DNA of 64,000 nt from Planctomycetia bacterium (GTDB lineage Bacteria > Planctomycetota > Planctomycetia > Pirellulales > UBA1268). Positions 30,758 through 64,000 of the stretch are shown in pieces. The notes beneath the pieces were generated by a model that saw only the letters and a program-made list of their open reading frames with translations, made no database searches and had not been told where the DNA came from. Position numbers and translations under genes: made by a program. The stretch lies in NCBI GenBank assembly GCA_021414115.1, contig JAIOPD010000120.1, positions 1 through 64,000 on the forward strand. The letters run 5' to 3'. Numbering within the stretch: position 1 is the first letter of the stretch; each line of letters opens with the position of its first letter.

Positions 30758-30915
30758 CCCAGGGAACGGACCCCCGACAGGGATCGAACAAACGCAGTCT
30801 CACCCGGAGAAAACCTGAAAAGGGGAAGTCACCCGGCGCAAATTCCGGCACCACCAAACGGAGCCGCCGCGGGGCTGCCAAGAAGGCCAATGGCCAGAAC
30901 GGAGGTGCGAAATGA
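30745..30915 (+). CDS. Small basic protein coupled to the recombinase
   Basis: MGTSPQGTDPRQGSNKRSLTRRKPEKGKSP...; overlaps the recombinase ATG. Confidence 0.45.
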   Translation: MGTSPQGTDPRQGSNKRSLTRRKPEKGKSPGANSGTTKRSRRGAAKKANGQNGGAK

Positions 30916-39654: not shown

Positions 39655-40086
39655 ATGGCTACGTTTTTCGTAAAGAGCGACGACTATGAGGCGGATTCGG
39701 TGTCGCGCGTCGGCTTGTTGGCCGACAACCCCGACTGCCGGCAACTACTGACCGAACTGGATACTCTTGGGGTAGAGAGCCTGCGACTGTTCTACCGAGA
39801 TGGGTTTGGCCGCGACCCCACCGTGCACGTCTTCGACATCGAGCCGAGAAAGGGCGTACGACTCTCCGCTCGCCAACTCCGTCAGATCTACGGCTTCTGC
39901 TATGCATTCACGTATCTGCTTCCGGACGTCTTGGCGAAGGCAGTCGAAGATACCGAGGCCGCCGACCACGAAGTGATCGTGGAGGTGTTTATCAGGATTG
40001 GCCCTACACCGGTAATGTCGGCGGCTGTAGAAGCCATTGAGGTGGTTGCGGATTTTGCGACCGGCCATCTTCTCAAACTCGTGTGA
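39655..40086 (+). CDS. Hypothetical protein
   Basis: MATFFVKSDDYEADSVSRVG; coherent ORF start. Confidence 0.5.
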   Translation: MATFFVKSDDYEADSVSRVGLLADNPDCRQLLTELDTLGVESLRLFYRDGFGRDPTVHVFDIEPRKGVRLSARQLRQIYGFCYAFTYLLPDVLAKAVEDTEAADHEVIVEVFIRIGPTPVMSAAVEAIEVVADFATGHLLKLV

Positions 40087-40100
40087 GTGGGCCCGCATTC

Positions 40101-40181
40101 GCCTGCGGCATTACGCGTCGTGATGCCGCAGGCAGTGCGCTCTGCCCCGCGCTGCGATTAACTCTTGCGGCAACGCGGGGC
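40101..40181. other. Two tandem hairpins
   Basis: GCCTGCGGCAT/ATGCCGCAGGC (40101-40133) and GCCCCGCG/CGCGGGGC (40144-40181). Confidence 0.6.
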
Positions 40182-40275
40182 GACTGGGATGGCACGACGC
40201 ATGAAATCACATCGCAGCTCGGCCTGTATCCGCGTGTTGCGGGCAGTGCCGCAGCCACAAACACAAAGGTGCTAA

Positions 40276-40662
40276 ATGGCTTCCAAGTCTTTTCCCTTGC
40301 GATATCCCGTATCGGGGATTGCGAAATCCCTGCTCGGTCAACTCAAGGATCGTGGTGTCGTCGAGATTGGCGGCCAATTCTTCAGCGGCGATTCCGGGCT
40401 CGGGCAGCCACCTGAGGGATCTTTGTCGTCGACGTTCGTCATGGCGCCGACGGCTTGCCCGCTATTACCGGGTGAGTGCGCCGCGGCCGTCACCGCGATC
40501 CGTGACGAAGTCCTTGGCTTTGCTGAACGACTAACGGATACGGCTCCCATCACCGGCACGTTGCTGCATGCTCGGTACTGCGTCCGCCCAGCCGTCGGTA
40601 TCGATTGCGATATCGAGTTGCTCGGGCTAGTGGACCGGATCGTTCGCATATCACTCTTTTGA
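40276..40662 (+). CDS. Hypothetical protein
   Basis: 128 aa MASKSFPLRYPVSGIAKSLLGQL. Confidence 0.5.
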   Translation: MASKSFPLRYPVSGIAKSLLGQLKDRGVVEIGGQFFSGDSGLGQPPEGSLSSTFVMAPTACPLLPGECAAAVTAIRDEVLGFAERLTDTAPITGTLLHARYCVRPAVGIDCDIELLGLVDRIVRISLF

Positions 40663-40719
40663 GATCCCACAGAAGCCACTAAACCACGATGCAGTGAATG
40701 GCCTTCGCTGATCTCCGCA

Positions 40720-42408
40720 ATGAAGCTTAACGACGTACCGCCCGGTAAATACCGGGCCCGCCTAGTAGGACGGCGCACCGACCGTGACGGCAAGGCGGCC
40801 GCGATCGAATTGACCTTCGAGGTCATCGACCGGCATCTTGCTGGACGGCGGGTGGCGGGCAAGTTCTGGAATCGCAATCTCGTGCTGCGAGCCAACGATC
40901 TAACCAAGAATCAACTTGTCGACATCGACGTGGCCGTCCGGCGTTCACAACGAGGCAAGGCATACGTCAACGTCATTGATTTCCGGCCGGCTGGTAAGCC
41001 GACGGCTGTCACGTTCGTGAACGGGCTCTGTTCGCACGATTGGGAAAACGAGAATGCCGTTCACCACGAGTACGGGCCGGCGGCATTGTGCACCGACCTC
41101 GATCTGCCGGAACTCGAATGGGAGCTTCGTGAGCGTGAAGCGGAGGGCATGCAGGTTGATGGGCTGCCGCTGCCGCTCCTCGAGTCGTTTACACTCCGTG
41201 AACTAAACAGGTTGATTGTTCGGGGTTCGCAGGCGGCTCCGTCGCCGCAGGATCATGCCTGCGGCGATGGTTGCGGCGGCTACAGAGAATACGCAACTCG
41301 TTTCGCCGCCACGCATGGTTTGGGAATCCTTGTCACGGGCAACACGGCCGGCCCATGGCAGCTCGTGCCGTTGGACGAGAGTTTTGCACGCTTTGCCCGG
41401 GCGGACTCTTCCGTCGGCCTGCATCTGCCCGCCCGACTTTCAGTTTTCCAGTATTCCGAGGACCTGCAGAGTTACTACTCGGCCCATGGCGGCTCGGTGG
41501 CGGGCTATCGCGGCGTAACGTGGGCCCGCTGGTGCATCGTCGAGCTCAACGGCAGCGACGGGCTGATGGATGTCCTCGAGACGAGTCGCTACCTCGTCAC
41601 CGCGCTAGGCCGACTAGGGCTACCCGAAGAGCAGATTCTCGTGTTTTATTCGGGCGATCGCGGGGTGAGCGTGATGTTTCCGTCCGGCATCGCAGGAGCC
41701 GTGCCTCAGCCAAACTTCGAGTTTGCTCTCGGCCAGTTCTGCCAAGTCATCGTCGACCAAGCAGCGATCATGCTCGGCAAGAAGCCGGCCCCGGGCAAGC
41801 CCGACGCTGCGGACGATCCCGTTTGGCACGAGCCGATCGACTGGAGCGTTTACAAGCCCAACGCGATGTTCCGAGCGCCCAACACGCTGCACGAGAGTAC
41901 CGGCTTGTTCAAAGTGCGAATCCAACACGATGAACTCTTCGCCCTCGACGAGGCAAGCATTCGATTGCTGGCCAAGCAGCCGCGGCCGTTCGAGCCGCCC
42001 TTATGGCAGGCATGCCCGAAGGAGCCGCTGAACGAGCTTTGGGGGTATGCCTTGGCGGTGGCACACAGCCGTCCATGGGCCATCGAACAGACGATTGGCC
42101 GTGGAAGCTGGGTTTACGCCGATACGTTTGACTTCATGCACAACGGAGCACCGAAGCCGACAGGGAACATGCGACTGTTCCGGGCGGCGGTAAATCTGCT
42201 GCAGGTCGGCTGCCCACGGCATGCTGTCTACCAATTGCTTTCGCCAGCTGCCCTGATGAGCGGTCTAAGCCCGGCGGCCGTGGATCGGCAGCTGAAAGGA
42301 GCTGTGCGCTACATGCGAAAGCCGCGGCAGGTCGTGCTGGATGCAGCCTTCACCCCGCAGTGGAGCCAACGAGACGGCCACAACGCTGGCGACGGAGGCA
42401 GTTCATGA
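40720..42408 (+). CDS. AEP-primase-like protein with N-terminal DUF669-like region
   Basis: N-term PPGKYRARLVGRRTDRDGKAAAIELTFEVID; primase-like RWCIVELNGSD, ILVFYSGDRGVSVMFPS, IDWSVYKPNAMFRAPNTLHESTGLFKV. Confidence 0.65.
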   Translation: MKLNDVPPGKYRARLVGRRTDRDGKAAAIELTFEVIDRHLAGRRVAGKFWNRNLVLRANDLTKNQLVDIDVAVRRSQRGKAYVNVIDFRPAGKPTAVTFVNGLCSHDWENENAVHHEYGPAALCTDLDLPELEWELREREAEGMQVDGLPLPLLESFTLRELNRLIVRGSQAAPSPQDHACGDGCGGYREYATRFAATHGLGILVTGNTAGPWQLVPLDESFARFARADSSVGLHLPARLSVFQYSEDLQSYYSAHGGSVAGYRGVTWARWCIVELNGSDGLMDVLETSRYLVTALGRLGLPEEQILVFYSGDRGVSVMFPSGIAGAVPQPNFEFALGQFCQVIVDQAAIMLGKKPAPGKPDAADDPVWHEPIDWSVYKPNAMFRAPNTLHESTGLFKVRIQHDELFALDEASIRLLAKQPRPFEPPLWQACPKEPLNELWGYALAVAHSRPWAIEQTIGRGSWVYADTFDFMHNGAPKPTGNMRLFRAAVNLLQVGCPRHAVYQLLSPAALMSGLSPAAVDRQLKGAVRYMRKPRQVVLDAAFTPQWSQRDGHNAGDGGSS

Positions 42409-43520
42409 GCGAAACAAATGACGAGTATGCCCGTCACCGTCCCGACCGGTACGACCTCGGCATGGCCTCGTTCGAAGGCGGTGACTTCGGCGACGAGTTC
42501 CCGCCAGCCAGCACGACACTTTTGGCGGACGTTCTAGACGCGGTCTTCAAGGACATCGAGGAGGCTGTGCCTTGCGTCGAATGGCCGGTGGGTGACGACG
42601 GATGGGGCACATTCGCGTTTCGCCCGAACACGGTCATCGTGGTGGGCGGCCCCACGAACGTCGGCAAGACCCCGCTGATCCTGAATTTGCTGTGGCAGGC
42701 GATGCACATCACGCCAACGCTGCGGGTTCTGATCGCCAACAACGAGAGCATGACCCGAGATTTGATCAACCGGCTCATCGCCATGCTCACGGAAATAGAC
42801 CTGCGGCACATTCGACGGCGGGACCGTGCGTACTGCTCGCCTGCCAAGCTCGCTGCGGCTCAAGCTGCCCTCCGGTTCGTTGCCGACCGGCTGGAGTTCA
42901 TGGAGATGCCCTTCACGCTCGAGCAGGTCGTTCAACGTGCCGCCTACTTCCGGGCGGACGTTGTGTGCGTGGACACCCTCCAGAAGCTCAGGCTCGAGGG
43001 CTACGACGGTGAAGCGGGCGACACAGTCGGCCGGATCATGCCCATGCTTCGTGATCTTGCGAATAAGGGGCCCTGTGTGGTCGCGGCGGCGTCGATATCG
43101 CGGGAAGGCGTGCGGCACCTCAAGCATCGCGTCGGGAAGACAACATACGACGAATTGGACGCCGGCGTGTTTTTGCACAACTCAGAAATCGAGAGTTCCT
43201 GCAACGACGCCTACACGCTCGCGGTCGAGTCTGGTGCAAAGGCGGCTCAGCGCGTCGACGAGGACTATCAGCTAATCAAGATGTGGCTCCATCACGTGAA
43301 GGCCCGGGATGAATTGAAGGTAAACATCCCGCTGTCGTTCGACGGTCGCTATCAGAAGTTCTCGCTGCGGGCGGCTGAGCAGGTGCGGGGGCCCACCTCG
43401 ATCACGGCCTTGACCCAGCCGAACGTTCAGGCCAGCCAACCATACAGGTCGCGGGCAGCTGCGGCTAAGGCGAGTATTCCCAAAAAAAAGGAGGACGGCG
43501 ATGACCACTGGCTCCGTTGA
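42405..43520 (+). CDS. DnaB/RepA-like RecA-fold ATPase (replicative helicase-like)
   Basis: Walker A VVGGPTNVGKTPLI; Walker B ADVVCVDTLQKL; overlaps the primase gene end. Confidence 0.75.
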   Translation: MSETNDEYARHRPDRYDLGMASFEGGDFGDEFPPASTTLLADVLDAVFKDIEEAVPCVEWPVGDDGWGTFAFRPNTVIVVGGPTNVGKTPLILNLLWQAMHITPTLRVLIANNESMTRDLINRLIAMLTEIDLRHIRRRDRAYCSPAKLAAAQAALRFVADRLEFMEMPFTLEQVVQRAAYFRADVVCVDTLQKLRLEGYDGEAGDTVGRIMPMLRDLANKGPCVVAAASISREGVRHLKHRVGKTTYDELDAGVFLHNSEIESSCNDAYTLAVESGAKAAQRVDEDYQLIKMWLHHVKARDELKVNIPLSFDGRYQKFSLRAAEQVRGPTSITALTQPNVQASQPYRSRAAAAKASIPKKKEDGDDHWLR

Positions 43521-43989
43521 TGGCATGTCAGAGCAAATCGGTGAGGGGCCAGAAAAGGCCGTTGGCTGCGCTCTTGGAACTGGCGATCGTGATTCCCGTG
43601 ATGCTGCTTGTGACGTTGCTGACAATGACCCAAAGGATTCAGCCTCGTGCACAAAAAAAGTTGCCATATTCAATCAGTTCATCGACAAGACTCTTGCCGG
43701 CCTGCCGCCAACTGCCGCCGTGCTCTGGCTGACATTGTTTCGTTTTGAGAAGCAGGGCGTCGCATGGGTAAGTCAAGGCACCCTTGCGAAACGGATGGGC
43801 GTGAATGAGAAGACCGTGTATCGGAATATGAAGATCCTGCTAGCGAAGAAACTCGTGCGGATCGAGTATCACGGCCGACTTGGGCAGGGTAGCCATAAGT
43901 ACCGGCTCGGACTCCCGCCGCTTGAACCCAGAACCAATCTGAATCGCTTCAAGAACAAAAGCTCGCCACGGGAGCGAAAGCCAAAGTGA
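43501..43989 (+). CDS. Winged-HTH protein, replication/regulatory
   Basis: WVSQGTLAKRMGVNEKTVYRNMKILLAKKLVRIEYHG. Confidence 0.75.
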   Translation: MTTGSVDGMSEQIGEGPEKAVGCALGTGDRDSRDAACDVADNDPKDSASCTKKVAIFNQFIDKTLAGLPPTAAVLWLTLFRFEKQGVAWVSQGTLAKRMGVNEKTVYRNMKILLAKKLVRIEYHGRLGQGSHKYRLGLPPLEPRTNLNRFKNKSSPRERKPK

Positions 43990-51406: not shown

Positions 51407-52261
51407 TCACCCCCCCCACGCCCGGCACGCAGCCCGATAGCCGCATGACGAGCACGACATGACAGACGGCGCCGGATAGAACTGCCCGCCTTCGATCGCC
51501 CGCCAGACCCGGCCCAACCCCGCCAAAGTGCGTTTCACGGCGGCTGGCTCGACCTCACGGACATGCTCCTCGACGACTGGCTCCTTGGTCTTCGTGAGCA
51601 CCAAGAACCGGGTCGCGATCTTCTTCCCCGGGCTGATCTCGCTGGCCAACTGCGCGTACAGCAACAACTGCTCACCTGAATCCTCGACCTGCTCCTGACT
51701 CCATTTGCCACGTGAAGTCTTGATGTCGGTCACCACCAGCGTGTCGCCATCCTCGGTCAGCAGATCGACCCTCCCGTACAGGTCCGGCACACCCTCGACC
51801 AGCATGCCCCGGATCTCCTCCTCGACGCCCAGCACCCGCCCATGAACGCTCGCCGCAGGGCTACTCAGGAACGCCGTGAGCATCCGTGCGGCCAGAGCAT
51901 CCAGCGAGGCCCGTGTCTCTGTGCTGCCGAACTGGATCGCGTCCGGGTCGTGCGGCAGCCATGCGGAGCGATAGGCGAACAGCAGTGCATCGAGGTCGGG
52001 CTTGGGATCGCCGGACAGAATCGCTTGGTAGTGGTGCTCGACGGCCGCGTGAATACCGGTGCCGAATACCAACGCCGCCGACACGCTCTCCTCGGGCAGG
52101 CCATCGACGTACCGGAACTTGTATTTCAGCGGGCAGGTTCGGAACATGCTGATGGCCGACCACGAGATGTAATCCCTGCCTGTGATCTTCCGGGCGACCT
52201 CATTGGCGGGGTTGGTGTTGGCGGGCGTGAGCACCGGCAGCAGGTCAGCGCCGGCGATCAT
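51407..52261 (-). CDS. PD-(D/E)XK nuclease, RecB/Cas4-like
   Basis: SWSAISMFRTCPLKYKFRYVDGLPE, VFGTGIHAAVEHHY, LVVTDIKTSRGKWSQEQ, CSSCGYRAACRAW. Confidence 0.9.
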   Translation of the reverse strand: MIAGADLLPVLTPANTNPANEVARKITGRDYISWSAISMFRTCPLKYKFRYVDGLPEESVSAALVFGTGIHAAVEHHYQAILSGDPKPDLDALLFAYRSAWLPHDPDAIQFGSTETRASLDALAARMLTAFLSSPAASVHGRVLGVEEEIRGMLVEGVPDLYGRVDLLTEDGDTLVVTDIKTSRGKWSQEQVEDSGEQLLLYAQLASEISPGKKIATRFLVLTKTKEPVVEEHVREVEPAAVKRTLAGLGRVWRAIEGGQFYPAPSVMSCSSCGYRAACRAWGG

Positions 52262-52797
52262 CGAGCACCCCCAGTCGCCGCGTAGGCCCCGTTGCCGTTC
52301 GTGCTGGTGCTGGCGGTCGACTCGTCGCTCTTCAATTCGTCGATGAGGCTGCTGGCCTGCCGGATGCCGAGTTCGTCCGCCGTCTGGATGCCGAATCGCC
52401 CCCGCAGCAGCCCCACGAGGTCAATCTTCCGACGCGCGGTGATGGCCCGGAGAGCGCGAATCTGACTCACGGTGGCGGGACGGGAGCTGGGCTGGCTCGT
52501 GAACTGGGCCGGCTGGATGCGCGAAACCGTGGCGCCGCTGATGGCCGGGCTGGTACGGACCTCGATGACCTCCTGCGGCTGACTGAGTTCGCTCTCGGGT
52601 TTACTGGTCAGCCTCGCGATCTGTTCCTGCACGGCTTGCTCGCACGACTGGTAGGCCTTCTTTACGACGATCTGAAAGCCCTCGGTGTCGTTGAGGAGCG
52701 TGCTGTCGAGTTCTGCCTCGATAACGCAGGAGGCCGAGGCGCTTGAGAAATTGGGCAAGCCAACTTTCTTCGAGACGCCTGCATGGAGTTTCAACAT
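52258..52797 (-). CDS. Hypothetical protein coupled to the RecB/Cas4-like nuclease
   Basis: 179 aa; ATGA overlap with the downstream nuclease. Confidence 0.7.
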   Translation of the reverse strand: MLKLHAGVSKKVGLPNFSSASASCVIEAELDSTLLNDTEGFQIVVKKAYQSCEQAVQEQIARLTSKPESELSQPQEVIEVRTSPAISGATVSRIQPAQFTSQPSSRPATVSQIRALRAITARRKIDLVGLLRGRFGIQTADELGIRQASSLIDELKSDESTASTSTNGNGAYAATGGAR

Positions 52798-52879
52798 GGG
52801 ATGAAGTTCCTGTTCGGGGTTGGGGAGAGATCACGGCGGCGTTGATTTCACCGCCGCCATCAAATGCCCGTGATTCACT

Positions 52880-52895
52880 GATTTAGATGTTAAAA
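52880..52895. promoter_or_regulatory. 16-bp motif variant GATTTAGATGTTAAAA (site d)
   Basis: Two mismatches to site a; upstream of the 52797 (minus) start. Confidence 0.45.
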
Positions 52896-52898
52896 AGC

Positions 52899-52952
52899 GA
52901 CGGGCGTGGGTGCAGTGAGGCTTGGGCACCTCCACCACACTCCACGCCCGTC
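52899..52952 (-). terminator. Candidate intrinsic terminator downstream of the 52994 gene
   Basis: GACGGGCGTGG/CCACGCCCGTC 11-bp stem, followed on the minus strand by GCTTTTTAA. Confidence 0.55.
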
Positions 52953-52993
52953 ACTTGTTGGGATCGCGGGGAATCTTCGAGCCGGTCAGCAGG

Positions 52994-53269
52994 TCACGCC
53001 GCTCGGGCCACCTGCTTCTTCGTGCCGGCCGTGGGCTTCCGCCGGGCCTTCAGCGTGCTCGTGTAGAACGGCTCACGGCACCCAAAGCCGAGCGCGTCCC
53101 AATCGACCATGCCCGTCTCCGGGAGGTCGATCAGGTCGAGCATGCACTCGGGATCGATGTCAGAGCCAGACTCTTCGGGCCCGGTCAGCATGAAGCCACG
53201 ACGACGAATCTCGTGGGAGTCTTCGCCGGTCTTCTGGGCCACGGCGTCAAACAGGTCGATGTCAGACAT
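52994..53269 (-). CDS. Hypothetical protein
   Basis: Start MSDIDLFDAVAQKTGEDSHEIRRRGF. Confidence 0.6.
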   Translation of the reverse strand: MSDIDLFDAVAQKTGEDSHEIRRRGFMLTGPEESGSDIDPECMLDLIDLPETGMVDWDALGFGCREPFYTSTLKARRKPTAGTKKQVARAA

Positions 53270-53478
53270 ACAGACTTTCCTCCTAAGAAAAGAGATGGAA
53301 CACGGACAGGAAACACGCCCGGCAGCCAGATGGGCCGACGGGGATACGAGAACGGCTGCTTGGGAACACCCCAGCGCGGCCATGAGTTCAAATTACTTTT
53401 GCTACTCCGACCGGATGAGCCGGAGGCATCGATGGGCTATGCTGATAGCCAGTCGATCGTGCTATTGCTCGCTGAGAT

Positions 53479-53943
53479 TTGCCGATGCAGCCTTCCGCCA
53501 AGATTCCTGCGGTTCTCACCGGCGTGGCAGGCGAGTATTTCGTGGCTGCGGAGTTGTCGCGACGAGGCTACATCGCTTCGATCTCATTGCGCAACACGCG
53601 GGGCATCGACGTTCTGGCGACCAACCAAGACGGGTCGCGGTCAGTCACGATTCAGTGCAAGACGAGCCAGAAAAAACGGAAGGGCTGGTTGTTGAACGAC
53701 AAAAGCGAAGCCTTCGTCGCAGAGAACCACTTCTACGTGTTCGTTTTGCTGGGCAACGTGACGGACAGGCCCCGATACCACGTTGTTCCCAGTCAGGTTG
53801 TGGCGAAACGCGTGAAAGCCGGTCACCGCAAATGGCTCGACACGCCGGGAAAAGGCGGCCGCAAGCACGCAGACAATGCCATGCGCCTGTTCACGGATGG
53901 CGATGACGAGTTTTTAGAGCGTTGGGATTTGTTGGGGCTTTGA
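53479..53943 (+). CDS. Restriction-endonuclease-fold (PD-(D/E)XK-like) small protein
   Basis: GVAGEYFVAAELSRRGY...NTRGIDVLATNQDGSRSVTIQCKTSQK. Confidence 0.7.
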   Translation: MPMQPSAKIPAVLTGVAGEYFVAAELSRRGYIASISLRNTRGIDVLATNQDGSRSVTIQCKTSQKKRKGWLLNDKSEAFVAENHFYVFVLLGNVTDRPRYHVVPSQVVAKRVKAGHRKWLDTPGKGGRKHADNAMRLFTDGDDEFLERWDLLGL

Positions 53944-54027
53944 GGCGTACTGCAGCCACAGATGATCGCGTTTGTCCATTTACTGCTTGGCGTGATCTGC
54001 TCTTTTCATACGGAGGCTTGAGCGGGA

Positions 54028-54606
54028 ATGGCTGATCTAGAGTTGCACTTTGATGGACCGTACACATTCACGGCCGGAGACAGGTCGCTCTTTCATTCGT
54101 CGTGCGCTACTGCAGCGGGCGTCTATCTCTGGACGTTTCGGCAGCAGAATGACGGAGGCCACCTGATCCATTACGTTGGCGAAACTATCTCGTTCGCCAA
54201 GCGTCAGCGGGAACATCTGATCCACGTTCTGAGCCTCAACTATGGCATGTTCGACCCAGAAAAGGCGCAGCATGGCATCGCGGAGATTCTCTGGCCCGGT
54301 TTGTGGCGAAAGAAATCAGCAGATGGCCCAGCGGAATGCCTAGAGGCCTACGGCGCTTTGAACGAAGTTGTGAAGCGGTATGTTCAGGCTTTGAATGTGT
54401 TCTTCGCGCCAACAACCGTCGAGCCGCTCTTGAGAAAGCATGTCGAGGGATGTGTCGGGTGGAATCTCCGCATGCGGCATCCGGAACACAAGGTGCTCTA
54501 TCCGGACGACAACCACATAGGGACGAGCAAGGACAAGACGAACGGCTTTCTCCGCATCACGAGCGCAGAGCCGATCCGCGGCCTTGATGTGGAGATTGCC
54601 TACTGA
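54028..54606 (+). CDS. GIY-YIG-like domain protein
   Basis: AGVYLWTFRQQNDGGHLIHYVGETISFAKRQREHL. Confidence 0.6.
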   Translation: MADLELHFDGPYTFTAGDRSLFHSSCATAAGVYLWTFRQQNDGGHLIHYVGETISFAKRQREHLIHVLSLNYGMFDPEKAQHGIAEILWPGLWRKKSADGPAECLEAYGALNEVVKRYVQALNVFFAPTTVEPLLRKHVEGCVGWNLRMRHPEHKVLYPDDNHIGTSKDKTNGFLRITSAEPIRGLDVEIAY

Positions 54607-54850
54607 TAGTGCCTGTGCTGGCCAGCCACCCCCTCTCCGCCCCCAACGCCTCCGTCCGGCTCCTGAATGGCCCCAGCACCGGCCCGCCTGACGGCCCCAT
54701 GTCAGCGAACCAGTAGCCCTCAGCATCTGGCTCGACATGGCTTGCTCGGGTGATCTGCAACTTCCCAATCTCCCGCAGGTCCAACTCTTCTCCATAGATG
54801 CACCGGACATCACCGCCTGCATCCACGACCAACTCCATCTCGCTGGTCAT
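54557..54850 (-). CDS. Hypothetical protein
   Basis: Overlaps the start of 54847-55866; 3' end overlaps the opposite-strand gene by 50 bp. Confidence 0.55.
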   Translation of the reverse strand: MTSEMELVVDAGGDVRCIYGEELDLREIGKLQITRASHVEPDAEGYWFADMGPSGGPVLGPFRSRTEALGAERGWLASTGTISRQSPHQGRGSALRS

Positions 54851-55866
54851 GCGGCACCTCCAACATTCCCACGACGGAGAATGTTCCTGCGGGGCCGATC
54901 CACGAGCATTTCTCCGACGCTCGCCTGAATCTGCTCGAAGTCCCGGGCGACCATCTGCCGAAGCCTGTTGGAGTCCCTGAGCGTCTGCGGCTCGACGCCA
55001 TTGATCGTCTGCTGGGCCTGTTCGACGAGGGCATCCAGTTCCGGGCTAGACCGGATGTTCAACCGCCGGAACCGCTCGAAGAACTCCCGGAGGTTCTCGA
55101 CGGCTGAGTCACGAAATACTTTGGGCTGACCGTCGTGAAGGCCCGTGAGCCTTTCAGCCAGATGAGCCGTGAGTCGCTGGAGTTCCGTGGCGAAGGCTTG
55201 TTCAGCGAGTTCGACGGCATTCTCGAAGCGTTCACGCACCCGGGCTTGTTCCTGCTGGAAAACGTCGGGACTCAGGGCCACGAGATAATTCGGCGGCTCG
55301 ATCGGCACGACGCTCCACTCCATGTCGAACAGGCCGTCGAGCGTGGAGGGATAGTCGGCTTGGTTGAAGAGCGTGCCAAGGCGCCGCTGGGCTTCTGACT
55401 TGATCTGGTCGTATTGGCCGCTGAGTTCCCGGGCAGCCTCTTGGAGCCTCTCGCGGTACGTCTGCATGGTGGTCGCGAACAGGCCGAGGGAGTTCTGTGG
55501 AAGGAGCCGAATGCCTGCCTCGGGGAATGGCAGCGTGACCGTGCGCCAGTAGGAAGAAGCCTCTGAGCGAACGGCAGCCACGGCACGATAGGCGGGGTTC
55601 TTGGTGTCGAGGATGAGTTTGCTGGCCGAGAGCAGTTCCCGGTCGGCATGGAACGCTCGGGCTGCTGTTGTTCGCTGTTCGGGGGCCAAGGTCTTACGAA
55701 CCCCGAGCCACGTGAAGGCAAGTTTCACGGCGGCCATCGTTGTGCGGAGTCTGTTGGCGGCGTTTCTCTCCTGCTGCGTGACCGGCTGCTGGGATTCACG
55801 CTGTCGGCCGCGATGGGAAACCTGCTGGCCGGTGTCGTGGGAAGTGGTGGTGGTTGCTGTGGACAT
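54847..55866 (-). CDS. DUF3150-like protein
   Basis: 339 aa; YPSTLDGLFDMEWSVVPIEPPNYLVALSPDVFQQEQARVRERFENAVELAEQAF. Confidence 0.55.
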   Translation of the reverse strand: MSTATTTTSHDTGQQVSHRGRQRESQQPVTQQERNAANRLRTTMAAVKLAFTWLGVRKTLAPEQRTTAARAFHADRELLSASKLILDTKNPAYRAVAAVRSEASSYWRTVTLPFPEAGIRLLPQNSLGLFATTMQTYRERLQEAARELSGQYDQIKSEAQRRLGTLFNQADYPSTLDGLFDMEWSVVPIEPPNYLVALSPDVFQQEQARVRERFENAVELAEQAFATELQRLTAHLAERLTGLHDGQPKVFRDSAVENLREFFERFRRLNIRSSPELDALVEQAQQTINGVEPQTLRDSNRLRQMVARDFEQIQASVGEMLVDRPRRNILRRGNVGGAA

Positions 55867-55949
55867 GGGGTTCCTGTGGGTGAAAACATTTCGGTGCTAT
55901 AGGTTCTAGAGTTGCGGGGCGATCTGCATGCGAACAGGAAGGTTGTGAG

Positions 55950-56627
55950 ATGGGTGTTGAAGACGACTTCACAAATGCACTGATAGATGCTTACCGACGA
56001 AGTGGTGAAGAGACGGGCTACTGGGCGAGACGTTTTCTCGCCGCAGTCAGACGACACGGTGGGCTGTCCACCGCGAAGCGCATGCTCAAGCCCCGTACGG
56101 CGGGGCAGCGGGCGGGGCTGGACACTCTCTTGGAAGCAGGCCGCCCCGACCTGACAATCGAAGCGATCATCCTTCGGCCTGAATATCGTGGTCTTTTCAC
56201 GGAAGCCGAGTTAGCCACGGCAGAGCAACGACTCGGTGATTATGCCCGGCAGTCGGATAGGATCCGGAGTGAACGGGAGCGGCTCTATCCCGATGAATTG
56301 GAACCCGGTCTTCAGTACACCGAGGGCGCACGAAAGTCGGTGCGGGTTAACGCCGCCGAGCGAAATCCGCGTGCGCGGCGGGCATGTATAGCCAACCATG
56401 GCCATGCATGCAGCGTGTGCGGGCTAGACTTTGGCCAAAGATACGGCGAGGTGGGTGTCGGGTTCATTCACGTGCATCATGTGAAGCCGCTATCACTGAC
56501 TGACAGGGAATACACCGTTGACCCTGTGAATGATCTCCGACCTGTATGCCCAAATTGCCATGCGATGCTTCACCGTACTGAGCCGGTCCTGACGATTGAG
56601 CAACTACGCGAGCGGCTGAGAGACTGA
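55950..56627 (+). CDS. HNH endonuclease
   Basis: CSVCGLDFGQRYGEVGVGFIHVHHVKPLS...VNDLRPVCPNCHAMLH. Confidence 0.92.
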   Translation: MGVEDDFTNALIDAYRRSGEETGYWARRFLAAVRRHGGLSTAKRMLKPRTAGQRAGLDTLLEAGRPDLTIEAIILRPEYRGLFTEAELATAEQRLGDYARQSDRIRSERERLYPDELEPGLQYTEGARKSVRVNAAERNPRARRACIANHGHACSVCGLDFGQRYGEVGVGFIHVHHVKPLSLTDREYTVDPVNDLRPVCPNCHAMLHRTEPVLTIEQLRERLRD

Positions 56628-56650
56628 CACCACAACAACACACGCACGAT

Positions 56651-58201
56651 TCAATTCACCCCCGGCTCTCGAACCACTCTCCGCACCCGCCCGCCACTGC
56701 TTCCCTCCGTCCGCGAATACACCCCCCCCCGATCCGCCGACAGGCACCGACCGGAAGCCCACTGGCGTAGCCCCTCGATCTTGTCGCCCGCAGTGACAGC
56801 CACGGGTACGACGTTCTGAGCGGCCTGAACGAGCGGCACGTCCAGAAGACTTGCCAGCCTGCAGCACGACTTGATCTCGGCCCCGGTCCAGTTGGCGTCG
56901 TCCGGCCGGGCCTGCTTCGCGTCCAGCCCGTAGTGCCGCGCGTAGATGCCCCAGATCGCGTCCTTCTGGTCTCGGCCGGGTAAGTCCACGAAGAACACGC
57001 CGTCGAACCTCTCGGCCCTCGCGAATTCCGGTGGGAGTTTGCTGGCGTCGTTGCAGGTACCCACGAAGAAGACGTCGCTCTCGTGGTCGTTCAGCCATGT
57101 GAGCAGACTCCCGAACACCCGAGCAGTGACGCCGGAGTCTGTCTGGCCGGATGACGTAGCCCCGGCCAATGCCTTCTCGATCTCGTCGGCGAACAGCACG
57201 CACGGGGCCATCGCGTCAGCCAGTTTCAGTGCCGCCCGGACGTTGCTCTCCGACTGGCCAACGAGACTTCCCAGCAGCGCGCCGACATCGAGGACGACCG
57301 TGGGCCTGCCAGTCTCGTTGCCGAGGGCCTTCGCGAACTGGGACTTGCCGCAGCCGGGAGGAGAGAGCAGAAGGACGCCGCGAGGCCGATTGTTGATTGT
57401 GCCCTCACTCTGCCGCCTCATCGCCCGCAGGCAGAACGCCTTGAGGTTGTCGAGGCCGCCGAGCTGGTCGAAGGACTCAGGGCCGCGGTGGATCGAAACG
57501 AGGCCGCTTTTCTTTAGCTGCTGACCCTTCAGCTCCCAGAGCGTTTCGGCCTTGAGCGTGCCGTGCCTGACCAGCGACAGCGAGTAGGCATTCTCGGCCT
57601 CGCTGCGCGTCAGGCCTTTCGCGGCATCGATCACCCGGGGGAGTTCGTCGGGACTGGGAAGTTCACCGTCCTGTGTGGCAACTCCGCGGGCGATCTCTTC
57701 CAGCTGAGCATGGTCCGGTAATTCATGGTCGACGCACACGAAGAGTTTGGCGAGTTCCGCGGGTATCTGAGTCACGGGAGCCAGCACGACGATAAAGGCC
57801 CGGTTGTGCTTGCCCGCGATAGCCTGCCTCGCGATGGCTTGGATGAGTTCGACGCTGCCCATGAAGCGGTGCAGGTTTTCAAATAACATAATCGTCGTGC
57901 TGGACCCGTTAGCGAGCTGCGGCATGGCCCGGATGACAGCCAGTGGGTCTTGGGTTTCGGTGACGCCCGGGATCGCGATCTGTTCGATGGGGAACTGGAC
58001 CCCGGAGTCGCAGTTCCAGACTCCCACCCGCCAGTTCTCAGCGCGGCACAGGTCGGTGATTTCCCGGGTGGCTTCGTGGGGTTCGTGAGTTTGGACCCAG
58101 ATGCCGGTGAAGCAGGCTGAGATGAGTTCGTGGAGGCGGGAGGTGAGCGTGGGTTTGGAAGGAGGGGTGGGTGGTTGTCGAGTTGTGGTGGTCTTCGGCA
58201 T
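56651..58201 (-). CDS. Ycf46-like AAA+ ATPase
   Basis: GVLLLSPPGCGKSQFAKAL, CVLFADEIEKAL, FVGTCNDASKLPPEFARAERFD; degenerate N-terminal AAA-like half. Confidence 0.82.
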   Translation of the reverse strand: MPKTTTTRQPPTPPSKPTLTSRLHELISACFTGIWVQTHEPHEATREITDLCRAENWRVGVWNCDSGVQFPIEQIAIPGVTETQDPLAVIRAMPQLANGSSTTIMLFENLHRFMGSVELIQAIARQAIAGKHNRAFIVVLAPVTQIPAELAKLFVCVDHELPDHAQLEEIARGVATQDGELPSPDELPRVIDAAKGLTRSEAENAYSLSLVRHGTLKAETLWELKGQQLKKSGLVSIHRGPESFDQLGGLDNLKAFCLRAMRRQSEGTINNRPRGVLLLSPPGCGKSQFAKALGNETGRPTVVLDVGALLGSLVGQSESNVRAALKLADAMAPCVLFADEIEKALAGATSSGQTDSGVTARVFGSLLTWLNDHESDVFFVGTCNDASKLPPEFARAERFDGVFFVDLPGRDQKDAIWGIYARHYGLDAKQARPDDANWTGAEIKSCCRLASLLDVPLVQAAQNVVPVAVTAGDKIEGLRQWASGRCLSADRGGVYSRTEGSSGGRVRRVVREPGVN

Positions 58202-58279
58202 GGGAACCTACTGCAAGGGAAAGATGTGGTGCTGGTAGCCTGATGAAGACCTGCTGGCACTACGCAAGAGGACATCAGC

Positions 58280-58639
58280 ATGAAGCGAGACATGGACTTG
58301 GTGCGGGCCATATTGCTCGCCGTGGAATCGCATCAAGACGGTTATGCGCCGTCCGATCTAAAGGTCGACGGATACACGGAAGACCAAGTTGCCTATCACT
58401 GCTATCTCCTAGGCCAAAGCGGCTTGGTCGAGGCGATCGACACAGCTCATATGGGCTCTGCATCGCCTACCGCCTCAATCCGCACACTGACTTGGGCCGG
58501 CTACGATTTTCTTGAGGCTTCGCGTGAGCCGTCGATTTGGCAGCAGGCAAAGGAGGTTGTCGATCGTGTCGGAGGTGCCTCGCTGACGATTTGGACCGCA
58601 GTCCTCACGGACCTCGTGCGAAGGAACCTAGGGCTGTAA
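58280..58639 (+). CDS. DUF2513-like protein
   Basis: MKRDMDLVRAILLAVESHQDGYAPSDLKVDGYTEDQVAYHCYLLGQSGLVEA...LTWAGYDFLEASRE. Confidence 0.85.
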   Translation: MKRDMDLVRAILLAVESHQDGYAPSDLKVDGYTEDQVAYHCYLLGQSGLVEAIDTAHMGSASPTASIRTLTWAGYDFLEASREPSIWQQAKEVVDRVGGASLTIWTAVLTDLVRRNLGL

Positions 58640-58641
58640 CG

Positions 58642-58977
58642 TCACGACTCAGTTTGCCCCCGCCCCAGCATCCAGCTCTCGGGCTGAATCCTGCCGAGCC
58701 AGTCTTGGAGCGTTGGGATCCTGCCCAAGTCTTCGAGGACGTGCTGCTCGCCGATGAATCTCACCGGGAGAATCCTGCCGGTCGAGAGCACTGTTGTGTT
58801 CCCGAAGAACTCCTCCAGCAGGAAGATGCCCTCGGAATGGTGCCTCAAGGCCCGGTGCCGGAAGTCCGCCATGTGGCTCTTGGATGCGTCCAGAAAGTCA
58901 TGAAACCTCAGGTACTCCTCCGGGATGCCGCCGAACTTCTTGGCCGATGAGACAGCGTGGTGATAGGAGTGTGCCAT
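58642..58977 (-). CDS. Hypothetical protein (DUF6915-like by memory)
   Basis: MAHSYHHAVSSAKKFGGIPEEYLRFHDFLDASKSHMADFRHRALRHHSEGIFLLEEFFG; abuts the next gene. Confidence 0.6.
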   Translation of the reverse strand: MAHSYHHAVSSAKKFGGIPEEYLRFHDFLDASKSHMADFRHRALRHHSEGIFLLEEFFGNTTVLSTGRILPVRFIGEQHVLEDLGRIPTLQDWLGRIQPESWMLGRGQTES

Positions 58978-59408
58978 TACAGGTCGAACTCCCGGGTGCT
59001 GTCGCGGGTCTCAGTGTAGTTCTCCTGATGCTGGATCGTGACCTTGGCCGTCTGGGTGTCGATCGTGAGCGTGCCTTGGCCGCCGTCGTTGATCTCGAAG
59101 CCAGAGGGCAGGAACTCGTAGATGCACGCCTCCAGTTGCTCGACAAGCGGCTGTGGAATCGTCGTTCTGTCTACGCGTTGTCCAACTGAGTCTCGGTACT
59201 GCAGGCCGTCGATGGCTCCTGAATCGCCGTAGCCCGAGTAGGCGGCTTCTACGGTGGCAACCCGGTGGGTTCGCAGGGCCGGGAGGACTTCTGCTCGGAG
59301 ATTGGCTTTTGCCCGCTCCAGCCGCGCCTGCTCGCATTGTTGGTAGTGGGCGAGGAGTTGCCGGACGTTCTCGCTGACGTGCTCTTCTGGGGGCTCGGAA
59401 TCGGCCAT
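58977..59408 (-). CDS. Hypothetical protein (DUF6878-like by memory)
   Basis: MADSEPPEEHVSENVRQLLAHYQQCEQARLERAKANLRAEVLPAL. Confidence 0.6.
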   Translation of the reverse strand: MADSEPPEEHVSENVRQLLAHYQQCEQARLERAKANLRAEVLPALRTHRVATVEAAYSGYGDSGAIDGLQYRDSVGQRVDRTTIPQPLVEQLEACIYEFLPSGFEINDGGQGTLTIDTQTAKVTIQHQENYTETRDSTREFDL

Positions 59409-59420
59409 TGATATCAAAAT
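59405..59420. promoter_or_regulatory. Partial motif copy GATATCAAAA next to the 59408 start (site e)
   Basis: 10-bp core shared with sites a and b. Confidence 0.3.
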
Positions 59421-59509
59421 CCTGTCGGGGGTTGGGTTGTTGGAGACGGCCGGCGTCCACAGCGGCGCAGATTTCATCGCCACCGCAAGACAGCGGAGCG
59501 GGGGGATAT

Positions 59510-59713
59510 TCAGTTCCCCTCGTGGAGCCACTCACTGGACTGGGCCTCCGCGTAGAACTGCTGCAGCAGGGTTTCGCGGCTAGATATCCCTAGGGCTCGC
59601 TCGAGGTCCCGGGTGGCGTCCCTGCAGGAACCGCCAGTGAAGCCCAATGTCTTGATGCTGGTTGCGCCTTCCGGGCTGACCGTGATCTCGATTCGCTTCT
59701 CGTTGGTGCTCAT
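59510..59713 (-). CDS. DUF2997 protein
   Basis: RIEITVSPEGATSIKTLGFTGGSCRDATRDLERALG. Confidence 0.85.
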   Translation of the reverse strand: MSTNEKRIEITVSPEGATSIKTLGFTGGSCRDATRDLERALGISSRETLLQQFYAEAQSSEWLHEGN

Positions 59714-60081
59714 CAGGCAGCACCTCCCACACGCACCGTCACGCGGATCGAGCCGTCTTGGATCGCAGTCTCGGTAACCATGTGGCCCTTCTTCCGGGCC
59801 TCGATCTTGGCCTTCTCGACGGCGTACGCCTGCAGGAACGAGTTCAGCCGGGACCAGTCGCCCCAGTGGCCGTTGTAGTTGTCGTAACTCAGTTGGCCGG
59901 TCTGGAGGTTGGCTACGACGGGGTACTGCCAGCCCGGAAGCTGGACGCAAAAGCCCGTCGCCGCCGCGTTAAACAGCCGGACGGTCTTGTGTTCAGGCGC
60001 AGCGAGTTGCAGACGAGTGCAGGCGGCCCGGACGGCAGCCTCGTCGCGTATTTCAGTTTTTATCTCGACTATATGGCTCAA
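59713..60081 (-). CDS. DUF1257 (Ycf35-like) protein, TTG start proposed
   Basis: LSHIVEIKTEIRDEAAVRAACTRLQLAAPEHKTVRLF...GWQYPVVANLQTGQLSYDNYNGHWGD. Confidence 0.82.
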   Translation of the reverse strand: MSHIVEIKTEIRDEAAVRAACTRLQLAAPEHKTVRLFNAAATGFCVQLPGWQYPVVANLQTGQLSYDNYNGHWGDWSRLNSFLQAYAVEKAKIEARKKGHMVTETAIQDGSIRVTVRVGGAA

Positions 60082-60470: not shown

Positions 60471-60824
60471 TCAGGGCTTGGTGCCGGCAATCAGAGGAAG
60501 TTGCGGGAAGGCATACGGTGCGCAGGTCCCCGGCACTGTGATGCGCACCAGACCGTCCTGAGCCTTGGCCGTCTTGATCTGGCCTTGTATGCCGGGAATC
60601 GGGACCTTCGTGCAGGTCGGCTCCCACTGGCCGGATGTGCTGAACCACGCGACCGGCTTCTCATGCAACTCGATCTTGGCGGTCGTGGGCCTGATGCAGC
60701 CGGAGTTAATGATCTGCCGGAGTTTCAGGCCCGTGGTGAAGTGGTAGACGTGCTCGGGAGGGTCGGGACTGGGCGGGGGCTGATCGGTCGAGGAAATCGG
60801 TATGAGCGTGACGTGGATTTGCAT
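60471..60824 (-). CDS. Small protein with HFTT..L..II..G.I motif (ART-like fold speculative)
   Basis: VYHFTTGLKLRQIINSGCIRPTTAKIELHEKPVAWFSTSGQWEPT. Confidence 0.55.
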   Translation of the reverse strand: MQIHVTLIPISSTDQPPPSPDPPEHVYHFTTGLKLRQIINSGCIRPTTAKIELHEKPVAWFSTSGQWEPTCTKVPIPGIQGQIKTAKAQDGLVRITVPGTCAPYAFPQLPLIAGTKP

Positions 60825-62210: not shown

Positions 62211-64000
62211 TTACGAATGAGTCGTGACGAATCGCACCGGCTCCGCCATCACGGCACTGAGACGTGCCATGTCCATCGCTCGTACCTGCAGCATGCGCTG
62301 GGCAAGTTCGGGGGGCAGGCAGTCAGAGAACTTGAGGGCAGTGATGGCGTCGGCGTCGATCGTGGGTAGCAGCGTCTCCGGGGGTGCGCGTCGCAGGTCA
62401 ACGACCAGCGGCTCGATCTCGGCCATCGCGGACCCCGTCTCGATCTTCACGGCGTAGTTGTCGTGGCTGATCTTGCCTTCGATCTGACGCTGTAGAGCAG
62501 TGGAGAGACTCGCGTTCACTGCTCTGCCAGCGAACGTCCACCAGCACAACTCTCCATTTGGCTCGGCCGTGACGGTTGTTCCGTCGGTCGTGAGCCACGG
62601 GTATTCGAGCCGCGCTTCGGCAAGGGTGTCGCGGGCCCGCCGTGACCACCAATCCCGGTCGACATCGGTCGCCAGCAGATCGCGGACTCGGCGACACATC
62701 GTGAAGCCAAGACCGACTCCGGGGCTACGCCACCGGGATCGCCCGGCGTCGGCTGCTGGCTCGACGTAGGCTATGCCGTGCTGCCAATCGACGTTGCGCA
62801 GGAGCCACGGGCGTCCACCGAGCGCAAGGATGACCGGCGCTCCCCGGCTTCTCGGGATGAACGACGAGCTGTCCACGAGCCCGAGTTCCCGTCGCCCGTA
62901 GCGCACCTGAAACAGTGGTGGCGTCAGAAAGACGCTCATCACCTCCATGTAGTTCCGCCAGCCGTACTCTCGCTCGCCGGCTTCCCCCATGCTCAAGATG
63001 CCGGCGTCTTCCCAGAGGATCGTCTGTTCGAGCATCGCGGCGATGACCGCCTCGACATCCTCCGGGGGCAGGTTGGCAAACCCGGGCATCCTGCCGATCC
63101 AGTCGCGCCACGCGGTCCTGCCGATACCCCTCTCCTGAAGAATGAGAGCGATGAGTTGCTGCGCCAGCACGTGGAACGGCAGCGGCGGAGGCTCGATCGG
63201 CTCGACGTAGCGATCTCGCCAGAGGTCGATGAGCGCCGCCGCCTGTAGGAGGCCGTTCTCATTGGTGGCGAGGAACAGGCAGTTGCGTGTCGTGCCCGAC
63301 CGCCTCCCGGTCCGACCCATGCGCTGGAGAAAGCTCGCCACCCGGCCGGGGGCGTCAATCTGGATCACACGGTCGAGATCGCCGACGTCGATGCCCAATT
63401 CGAGCACGCTCGTGGCGACGATTACACAGTTCTCCCTGTTTGCGAACGCGTCTTCAGCCTGTCGTCGCTGATCGACCGAGAGCGAACTGTGGGTCACGAA
63501 GGCCGTGGTGCCGAGCCGCGTGAGTTCGGATCCCAGTTCCTCGGCCCGGGAACGGCTCTCGCAGAACACAAGCCGCTTTTCCCCACGGTGGAGCCGAGAG
63601 ATCACGATCGCGGCGTTGGGGATCGAGCCCACGTAGTCGAGGGTGACGTCGGCAGGAGCTGCGGTCGATGCCTCTGGTGCGTAGACGCGCCGCGGACCGC
63701 TGCACGAACCCGCCAACCAGTCACACAGAGCCTCGGGATTGCCCACCGTGGCCGACAGGCCGATCCGCTGCACATCGCGGCCCGCCAGCCGGCTGACCCG
63801 CTCCAGCACCGAGAGCAGGTGCCAGCCACGGTCATCACCAGCGAAAGCGTGGATTTCGTCGATGACGAACGCCTGCAGGTTGCCGAACAGCCGCTCCTCG
63901 TCGATGCGGCTGGATACGAGCATCACCTCCAGCGACTCAGGGGTCGTCAGCAGGATGTCAGGAGGATCGAGCGCGATCTTGCGTCGAGCACCCGCTGAGG
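62211..64000 (-). CDS. Lhr-like superfamily 2 helicase, C-terminal part (gene continues past the window)
   Basis: Frame open to window end (PPDILLTTPESLEVML); VIDEIHAF, GLSATVGNPEAL, VLELGIDVGDLDRVIQIDAPGRVASFLQRMGRTGRR. Confidence 0.9.
   Translation of the reverse strand, partial: SAGARRKIALDPPDILLTTPESLEVMLVSSRIDEERLFGNLQAFVIDEIHAFAGDDRGWHLLSVLERVSRLAGRDVQRIGLSATVGNPEALCDWLAGSCSGPRRVYAPEASTAAPADVTLDYVGSIPNAAIVISRLHRGEKRLVFCESRSRAEELGSELTRLGTTAFVTHSSLSVDQRRQAEDAFANRENCVIVATSVLELGIDVGDLDRVIQIDAPGRVASFLQRMGRTGRRSGTTRNCLFLATNENGLLQAAALIDLWRDRYVEPIEPPPLPFHVLAQQLIALILQERGIGRTAWRDWIGRMPGFANLPPEDVEAVIAAMLEQTILWEDAGILSMGEAGEREYGWRNYMEVMSVFLTPPLFQVRYGRRELGLVDSSSFIPRSRGAPVILALGGRPWLLRNVDWQHGIAYVEPAADAGRSRWRSPGVGLGFTMCRRVRDLLATDVDRDWWSRRARDTLAEARLEYPWLTTDGTTVTAEPNGELCWWTFAGRAVNASLSTALQRQIEGKISHDNYAVKIETGSAMAEIEPLVVDLRRAPPETLLPTIDADAITALKFSDCLPPELAQRMLQVRAMDMARLSAVMAEPVRFVTTHS

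What the first reader, a model, noticed from the sequence alone, without database searches (positions are those of the whole stretch)
51407..60081. Minus-strand AAA+/DUF1257/DUF2997 gene set resembling a mobile Ycf46-Ycf35 module
In order of transcription: DUF1257 (Ycf35-like), DUF2997, two small coupled unknown genes, a Ycf46-like AAA+ ATPase, a DUF3150-like protein, a small protein, then two further unknown proteins and a RecB/Cas4-like nuclease. Most neighbours in the same strand overlap or abut. The Ycf46, Ycf35 and DUF2997 families are poorly understood. Finding them together with a nuclease on an integrative element suggests an uncharacterised macromolecular system, possibly defence or element maintenance.
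Basis: partly seen in the sequence, partly recalled or inferred. Interest (0 to 1): 0.75.

Follow-up and report, generated by a model that had tools for sequence, protein, structure and literature searches.

The report
Phage-derived backbone of planctomycete defence islands
A conserved set of about ten bacterial genes, most of them shared with giant phages, sits beside a different large antiviral system in almost every planctomycete genome examined and carries swappable extra genes in the gaps between its own genes, so it looks like the frame of a mobile defence island; what the core proteins themselves do is still unknown.

Summary
The gene set is real and under purifying selection. It reads DUF1257-like, DUF2997, DUF6878, DUF6915, a CDC48-type AAA+ ATPase, a DUF3150-like protein, three small proteins and a PD-(D/E)XK nuclease. 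The same order recurs across Planctomycetota, including closed genomes, where the neighbouring large defence system differs between loci (BREX, Hma, type I RM, DISARM, CRISPR-Cas). A relative of the module sits near the terminase of ~200 kb phages, and looser versions occur on plasmids. In the window's own family the gap genes turn over and flanking gene ends are duplicated: 44 of 49 partial AAA copies hold the 3' end, many fused to the upstream or 5' part of the DUF3150-like gene. Breakpoints vary, so this looks like homologous or microhomology recombination, not a site-specific integrase. Best reading: a phage-related module serving as backbone of integrated islands that ship interchangeable defence systems and single-gene cargo. 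Whether the core proteins defend, or only maintain the island, is open.

The parts
59713..60081 (-). DUF1257-like (Ycf35-type) protein, 122 aa, TTG start, first gene of the conserved core
   Evidence: Pfam DUF1257 E 0.12 only; conserved position and 46-82% identity in relatives and phages
59510..59713 (-). DUF2997, 67 aa
   Evidence: Pfam PF11211 1.2e-11; phrog_23133 8e-8
58977..59408 (-). DUF6878, 143 aa
   Evidence: Pfam PF21798 6e-11
58642..58977 (-). DUF6915, 111 aa
   Evidence: Pfam PF21866 5.5e-44; phrog_8143 5e-41; 60-69% identity in ~200 kb phages
58280..58639 (+). cargo gene in the AAA/DUF6915 gap: DUF2513 protein
   Evidence: Pfam PF10711 1.4e-28; gap content differs in relatives
56651..58201 (-). 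AAA+ ATPase, CDC48-type ATPase domain with a long N-terminal region; hub of the gene-end duplications
   Evidence: Pfam AAA 2e-27; phrog_8638 7e-85 over residues 7-511; second copy in the genome at 84% identity
55950..56627 (+). cargo gene in the AAA/g339 gap: HNH endonuclease
   Evidence: Pfam HNH 1.8e-6; other genes in this gap in the relatives
54847..55866 (-). g339, DUF3150-like protein, 339 aa
   Evidence: family member hits DUF3150 2.7e-4; fold match to phage DUF3150 protein 4.7e-12
54557..54850 (-). g97, small conserved protein, also in the phages
54028..54606 (+). cargo gene in the g97/g91 gap: GIY-YIG-like motif (GVYLW...HYVGET), no Pfam match
   Evidence: motif read from the sequence
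53485..53943 (+). cargo gene in the g97/g91 gap: Mrr-like (restriction endonuclease-like), weak match
   Evidence: Pfam Mrr_cat 1.2e-3, below its cut-off
52994..53269 (-). g91, small conserved protein with an AGGAGG-type ribosome site
52258..52797 (-). g179, conserved protein overlapping the nuclease gene; no family match
   Evidence: structure prediction too poor to use
51407..52261 (-). PD-(D/E)XK nuclease, RecB/Cas4/phage exonuclease-like
   Evidence: PDDEXK_1 4.8e-34; phrog_69 exonuclease 1.9e-28
60471..60824 (-). g130, conserved protein upstream of the core in several relatives of this family
   Evidence: dN/dS 0.09
62211..63998 (-). BrxHI helicase (continues past the window), last gene of a BREX type 2 operon pglW-pglX-brxC/pglY-pglZ-brxD-brxHI in the same contig
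   Evidence: PADLOC BrxHI 1.6e-220, PglW 0, PglX 0, BrxC 0, PglZ 1e-229, BrxD 1e-198

Best explanation
The set is a phage-related gene module that serves, in planctomycete chromosomes, as the conserved backbone of an integrated island that carries interchangeable antiviral systems. Shown: (1) the core order is conserved and the genes are under purifying selection; (2) most of its members form a module near the terminase in a clade of ~200 kb tailed phages whose ATPase is the sister group of the window's clade; (3) a large defence system lies beside the core in 8 chromosomal loci and its type differs between loci; (4) small cargo genes occupy the gaps between core genes, mostly on the opposite strand, and differ between genomes; (5) in the window's family, partial copies of the core gene ends that border the gaps are repeated with cargo between them, often joined as [g339 upstream/5' end]::[AAA 3' end] at varying breakpoints. 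Inferred: cargo enters and is exchanged by homologous recombination in the gene ends bordering each gap (two crossovers swap it cleanly, one crossover of a circle or tandem unit leaves a second gene end), and circles or tandem units form by short homologies. Inferred with low confidence: the ATPase with DUF3150-like, DUF1257-like and DUF2997 partners is a remodelling complex used in DNA maintenance or replication of the element, and the exonuclease aids recombination.
For: Core order in 30+ loci. dN/dS 0.09-0.37. Phages: 78 IMG/VR loci, DUF1257-DUF2997-AAA-DUF3150-like-g97 in order in roughly half of them, many contigs of 197-205 kb; terminase 6e-44 near the module; tree 97/92 for the join, 100/99 and 100/100 for the two clades. 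Defence neighbours: BREX 2 in the window, BREX with BrxC/PglZ/BrxL in G038 and CRISPR-Cas type I in C65, Hma, type I RM twice, BREX 2 and DISARM in L229, L233, L236, L234, L235. Cargo: 43 minus to 17 plus relative to the core; families include CBASS NucC and cyclase, macro domain, DUF4062, reverse transcriptase, FGE-type and PEP-CTERM proteins. Gene-end copies: 44 of 49 partial AAA matches at 65% identity or more hold the 3' end, one the 5' end (my count); g339-arm sequence next to about 16 of 31 AAA 3' fragments with at least nine different coordinates; g91::g97 junctions. The four gap genes of the window are poorer in GC (0.56-0.59) than the core (0.60-0.65).
Against: No integrase or att sites were found for the window's island. 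Closed genomes show the core plus defence system but no gene-end arrays, so the arrays rest on metagenome assemblies of one family. Fewer than fifteen loci were looked at for defence neighbours, not a random sample. Only 2 of the 7 pglW genes found in 149 genomes of the phylum lie beside this module, so the partnership is one-sided. The nuclease gene was not found in the phage records. No function of any core protein was tested.
Confidence: 0.6

Rival explanations
1. The core is itself part of the immune response: an accessory AAA+ and nuclease module that works with, regulates or backs up whichever large defence system lies beside it.
For: Different, mostly DNA-modification-based systems sit beside the same conserved core, and in five loci of closed or near-closed genomes a 65-74 aa HTH protein stands between the two divergent operons. 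The ATPase domain is distantly like IetA of the IetAS defence system (4e-19).
Against: Relatives of the module sit in ~200 kb phages near the terminase, and looser versions on plasmids, where no link to defence was seen. IetA similarity is confined to the AAA domain, and no protease partner was seen.
Confidence: 0.2
2. The core is a decaying prophage or plasmid remnant with no present function, and defence genes accumulate there because the site tolerates insertions.
For: Broken copies exist (L093; AAA with a stop in G107; frameshifted copy in G043) and fragments are common.
Against: Intact copies with dN/dS of 0.09-0.37 across all core genes, including those of 67-122 codons, and conserved order across families.
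Confidence: 0.1
3. The gene-end arrays come from assembly errors or ordinary pseudogene debris.
For: All arrays are in draft, mostly metagenome-assembled genomes; closed genomes of other families lack them.
Against: Independent assemblies, arrays inside long contigs (233 kb and 69 kb), fragments diverged 10-20% from the full gene, strong 3'-end bias (44 to 1) and the same junction (g339 +240 :: AAA codon 432) in three genomes.
Confidence: 0.1

Closest known systems
Core defence hotspots and defence islands (P. aeruginosa cDHS1/2, PMC10250203; E. coli defence islands, PMC10121019)
   Same: conserved flanking genes with interchangeable antiviral systems between or beside them
   Different: here the conserved genes are a phage-related module that also carries small cargo in its own internal gaps and, in one family, is multiplied as gene-end repeats
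Cargo ('moron') loci of phages, P4-type satellites and SXT-type integrative elements (from general knowledge)
   Same: extra genes inserted between conserved element genes, often on the opposite strand, many of them defence genes
   Different: no virion, satellite or conjugation genes were seen beside the core; the backbone is the AAA/DUF1257/DUF2997/DUF3150 module
AAA-DUF1257-DUF2997-DUF3150 set on the Candidatus Manganitrophus plasmid CP114554 and, without an annotated DUF3150 gene, in Rhizobium phage RHph_I4 and a Bacillus licheniformis plasmid
   Same: three to four of the same families side by side
   Different: no DUF6915 gene, g91 or PD-(D/E)XK nuclease is annotated beside them; AAA comes first; about 30-39% ATPase identity
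Integrons
   Same: arrays of gene units separated by repeats
   Different: the repeats are coding ends of core genes, breakpoints vary, and no conserved palindromic site was found
IetAS defence system
   Same: AAA ATPase domain, weak similarity
   Different: similarity confined to the ATPase domain; no protease partner seen

Membership tests
DUF1257 (Ycf35) | match to the family profile above its cut-off | tested here: not met
   Pfam E 0.12, 13.1 bits against a cut-off of 22.2; called 'DUF1257-like' on position and homologues
Ycf46 | sequence membership in the Ycf46 family | not tested
   no Ycf46 sequence or model was compared; the ATPase domain scores best against CDC48 models and Cdc48/p97 structures
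DUF3150 | profile match or same fold | tested here: met
   one distant member 2.7e-4; fold match 4.7e-12 to a phage DUF3150 protein; the window protein alone gives no profile match
BREX type 2 (neighbour) | pglW, pglX, brxC/pglY, pglZ, brxD, brxHI together | tested here: met
Known defence system for the core itself | core proteins match PADLOC models of a described system | tested here: inconclusive
   of the core only the AAA protein was scanned; IetA hits confined to the ATPase domain
Prophage or phage satellite | virion or packaging genes beside the core | tested here: inconclusive
   none seen among the window genes scanned, but not all flanking genes were scanned
Integron | one conserved recombination site with integron integrase | tested here: not met
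   at least nine different junction coordinates; no conserved palindromic site; integrase not searched for systematically
Integrative element | integrase and att repeats at a defined target | tested here: inconclusive
   serine recombinase at window 30912-32921 and GC step but no ends; integrase next to tRNA-Met in L234, no repeat found within the 60 kb held

The most novel reading that the evidence does not exclude
In this planctomycete family the core operon acts as an integrase-free cassette platform: the coding ends of its own genes (last 50-120 codons of AAA, upstream/5' part of the DUF3150-like gene, ends of g97, g91 and the nuclease) serve as short homology arms through which circular or linear gene units are captured, stacked and exchanged, possibly driven by the operon's own exonuclease in the manner of phage Red recombination, while the core genes stay intact.
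Probability: 0.17. Interest if true: 0.88.

Novelty: new variant of a known kind. Interest (0 to 1): 0.68.

Why it matters
It gives planctomycete defence islands a recognisable backbone: the module can be used as bait to find defence systems and unknown cargo. It links a group of widely distributed but uncharacterised families (DUF1257, DUF2997, DUF3150, DUF6915 and their AAA partner) to phages and to antiviral islands, so that their long-open function becomes testable. The gene-end arrays, if confirmed by long reads, would show how genes can be collected without a dedicated integrase.

Tried and rejected
A single site-specific recombination site was tested and rejected: breakpoints vary. An attC-like hairpin at the array junctions: the X region folds no better than shuffled sequence (z -0.3 and -1.3) and part of it is a dispersed repeat found also without core genes. 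Rfam found nothing in the window region. PDB fold search with the DUF3150-like model gave nothing. The g179 model was too poor (mean pLDDT 46.5) to test whether it is an annealing protein, so the Red-like idea stays untested. Literature searches found no description of the set. A paper on a lineage of large aquatic phages, the moraphages (PMC12619734), was consulted; its predicted hosts are Bacteroidota and no link was established. Conserved recombinase next to the core: only a fragment in L010 and a distant one in L022. A Terminase_6N search of the large phages was empty for nine of ten, but a PHROG terminase match was found.
Full report
What is there. In order of transcription they are a DUF1257-like protein (59713-60081), DUF2997 (59510-59713), DUF6878 (58977-59408), DUF6915 (58642-58977), an AAA+ ATPase (56651-58201), a DUF3150-like protein here called g339 (54847-55866), g97, g91, g179 and a PD-(D/E)XK nuclease (51407-52261). 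Four plus-strand genes lie in the gaps: DUF2513 between DUF6915 and AAA, an HNH endonuclease between AAA and g339, and a GIY-YIG-like and an Mrr-like gene between g97 and g91. The cargo genes have lower GC (0.56-0.59) than the core (0.60-0.65).

Neighbours. The helicase at 62211-63998 is BrxHI, and the contig continues with BrxD, PglZ, BrxC/PglY, PglX and PglW: a complete BREX type 2 system directly upstream of the core. A second copy of the core in the same genome (84% identical ATPase) has CRISPR-Cas type I genes (Cas3, Cas8, Cas7) about 8 kb upstream. The ratio of amino-acid to silent change between the two copies is 0.09-0.37 for each core gene, so all are under purifying selection.

Relatives. 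A scan of a collection of 84,980 species genomes with the ATPase found 32 loci, nearly all Planctomycetota, with the order DUF1257 - DUF2997 - (DUF6878 - DUF6915) - AAA - g339 - g97 - g91 - g179 - nuclease where the contig is long enough. A search of 149 genomes of the phylum found window-like copies (E below 1e-200) also in closed genomes of the same class. There, in five loci, the core is preceded by a divergent 65-74 aa HTH gene and a defence operon on the opposite strand: Hma in L229, type I restriction-modification in L233 and L236, BREX 2 in L234, DISARM in L235. With BREX 2 in the window, BREX in G038 and CRISPR-Cas in C65, eight scored loci have a defence system beside or close to the core. 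Loci with a broken or shortened core (L230, L231, L232) do not obviously have one and were not fully scored, and G011 and G012 gave at most a weak candidate hit. In the other direction, only 2 of 7 pglW genes in those genomes lie beside a window-like core.

Phages and plasmids. The ATPase matches phrog_8638 over its length (7e-85). A scan of viral contigs gave 78 loci; roughly half hold DUF1257-DUF2997-AAA-g339-g97 in order, and DUF6878 and DUF6915 follow in 26 or 27. Many contigs are 197-205 kb long. The terminase large subunit lies a few kb from the module, so these are tailed phages. In a tree of the ATPase the window's chromosomal clade (100/99) is sister to the phage clade (100/100), joined at 97/92; other chromosomal and viral rows are intermixed. 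More distant sets occur on a Manganitrophus plasmid, in a Rhizobium phage and on a Bacillus plasmid. The nuclease gene was not found in eleven phage records.

Cargo and gene-end copies. In the window's family the gaps hold different genes in different genomes, 43 of 60 antiparallel to the core (p about 0.001). They include NucC and a cyclase (CBASS) in L025, a reverse transcriptase with an Avd-like protein and an FGE-type protein in L028, a macro-domain protein, DUF4062, protoglobin, PEP-CTERM proteins and LRR-like repeat proteins. Homology between loci stops at or just after the stop codon of AAA and, in several pairs, at the start codon of g339. In 72 genomes of the family, 44 of 49 partial AAA copies of at least 65% identity contain the 3' end, and one the 5' end (counted by me). 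Solo 3' ends of the nuclease and 5' ends of g339 are also frequent. Arrays such as L085, L086, L087 and L101 show AAA 3' ends every 1.3-5 kb with different genes between them. About 16 of 31 fragments are preceded, directly or within about 100 bases, by g339 upstream or 5' sequence, with at least nine different junction coordinates; two junctions show 5-7 bp of shared sequence. g91::g97 junctions occur in L025 and L099. C65 has the mirror form: g339 5' part, cargo, full g339. Closed genomes of other families lack such arrays.

Interpretation. Single crossovers of circular or tandem units carrying a gene end would give a full gene plus a partial copy; double crossovers would give clean swaps. 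Variable breakpoints argue against a site-specific integrase. Whether the operon's own exonuclease takes part is unknown; the g179 structure could not be predicted. The DUF3150-like identity of g339 is supported by one profile match and by fold. I found no paper that gives a function for this set; a role in DNA maintenance of the element is my inference from its place in phages.

Limits. The defence-neighbour count is small and not random. Gene calls in relatives come from a simple caller written here. Array evidence is from draft assemblies. Ycf46 membership was not tested.

Noticed in passing
window 30912-32921 and 31-36 kb: Large serine recombinase; GC falls from 0.66-0.68 to about 0.61 and below by 34.5 kb, a possible edge of the island that continues to the contig end at 82.5 kb.
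   Followed up: partly
window 39655-43989: Separate plus-strand block with a DnaB-like helicase (PF03796 3e-10) and uncharacterised neighbours, possibly a phage or plasmid replication module.
   Followed up: no
L028:5313-7985: Diversity-generating retroelement-like set (reverse transcriptase, Avd-like protein, FGE-type protein) as cargo between AAA and g339.
   Followed up: partly
L025:2558-4068: NucC nuclease and CD-NTase (minimal CBASS) inserted between g97 and g91.
   Followed up: partly
L085:619-703: 85-base piece of a longer dispersed repeat found about ten or more times in G038 and in related genomes, at least twice next to core gene-end fragments.
   Followed up: partly
L086:10336-10408: A tRNA gene stands directly before the array of AAA 3' ends in G038.
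   Followed up: no
L230:3559-4886 and L232:14935-16266: JAB and ThiF/E1-like pair beside the core, where other loci have g179 and the nuclease.
   Followed up: no
L104:1292-3361: Large serine recombinase and a HicA/HicB-like pair just before an AAA 3' fragment with FGE-type cargo.
   Followed up: no
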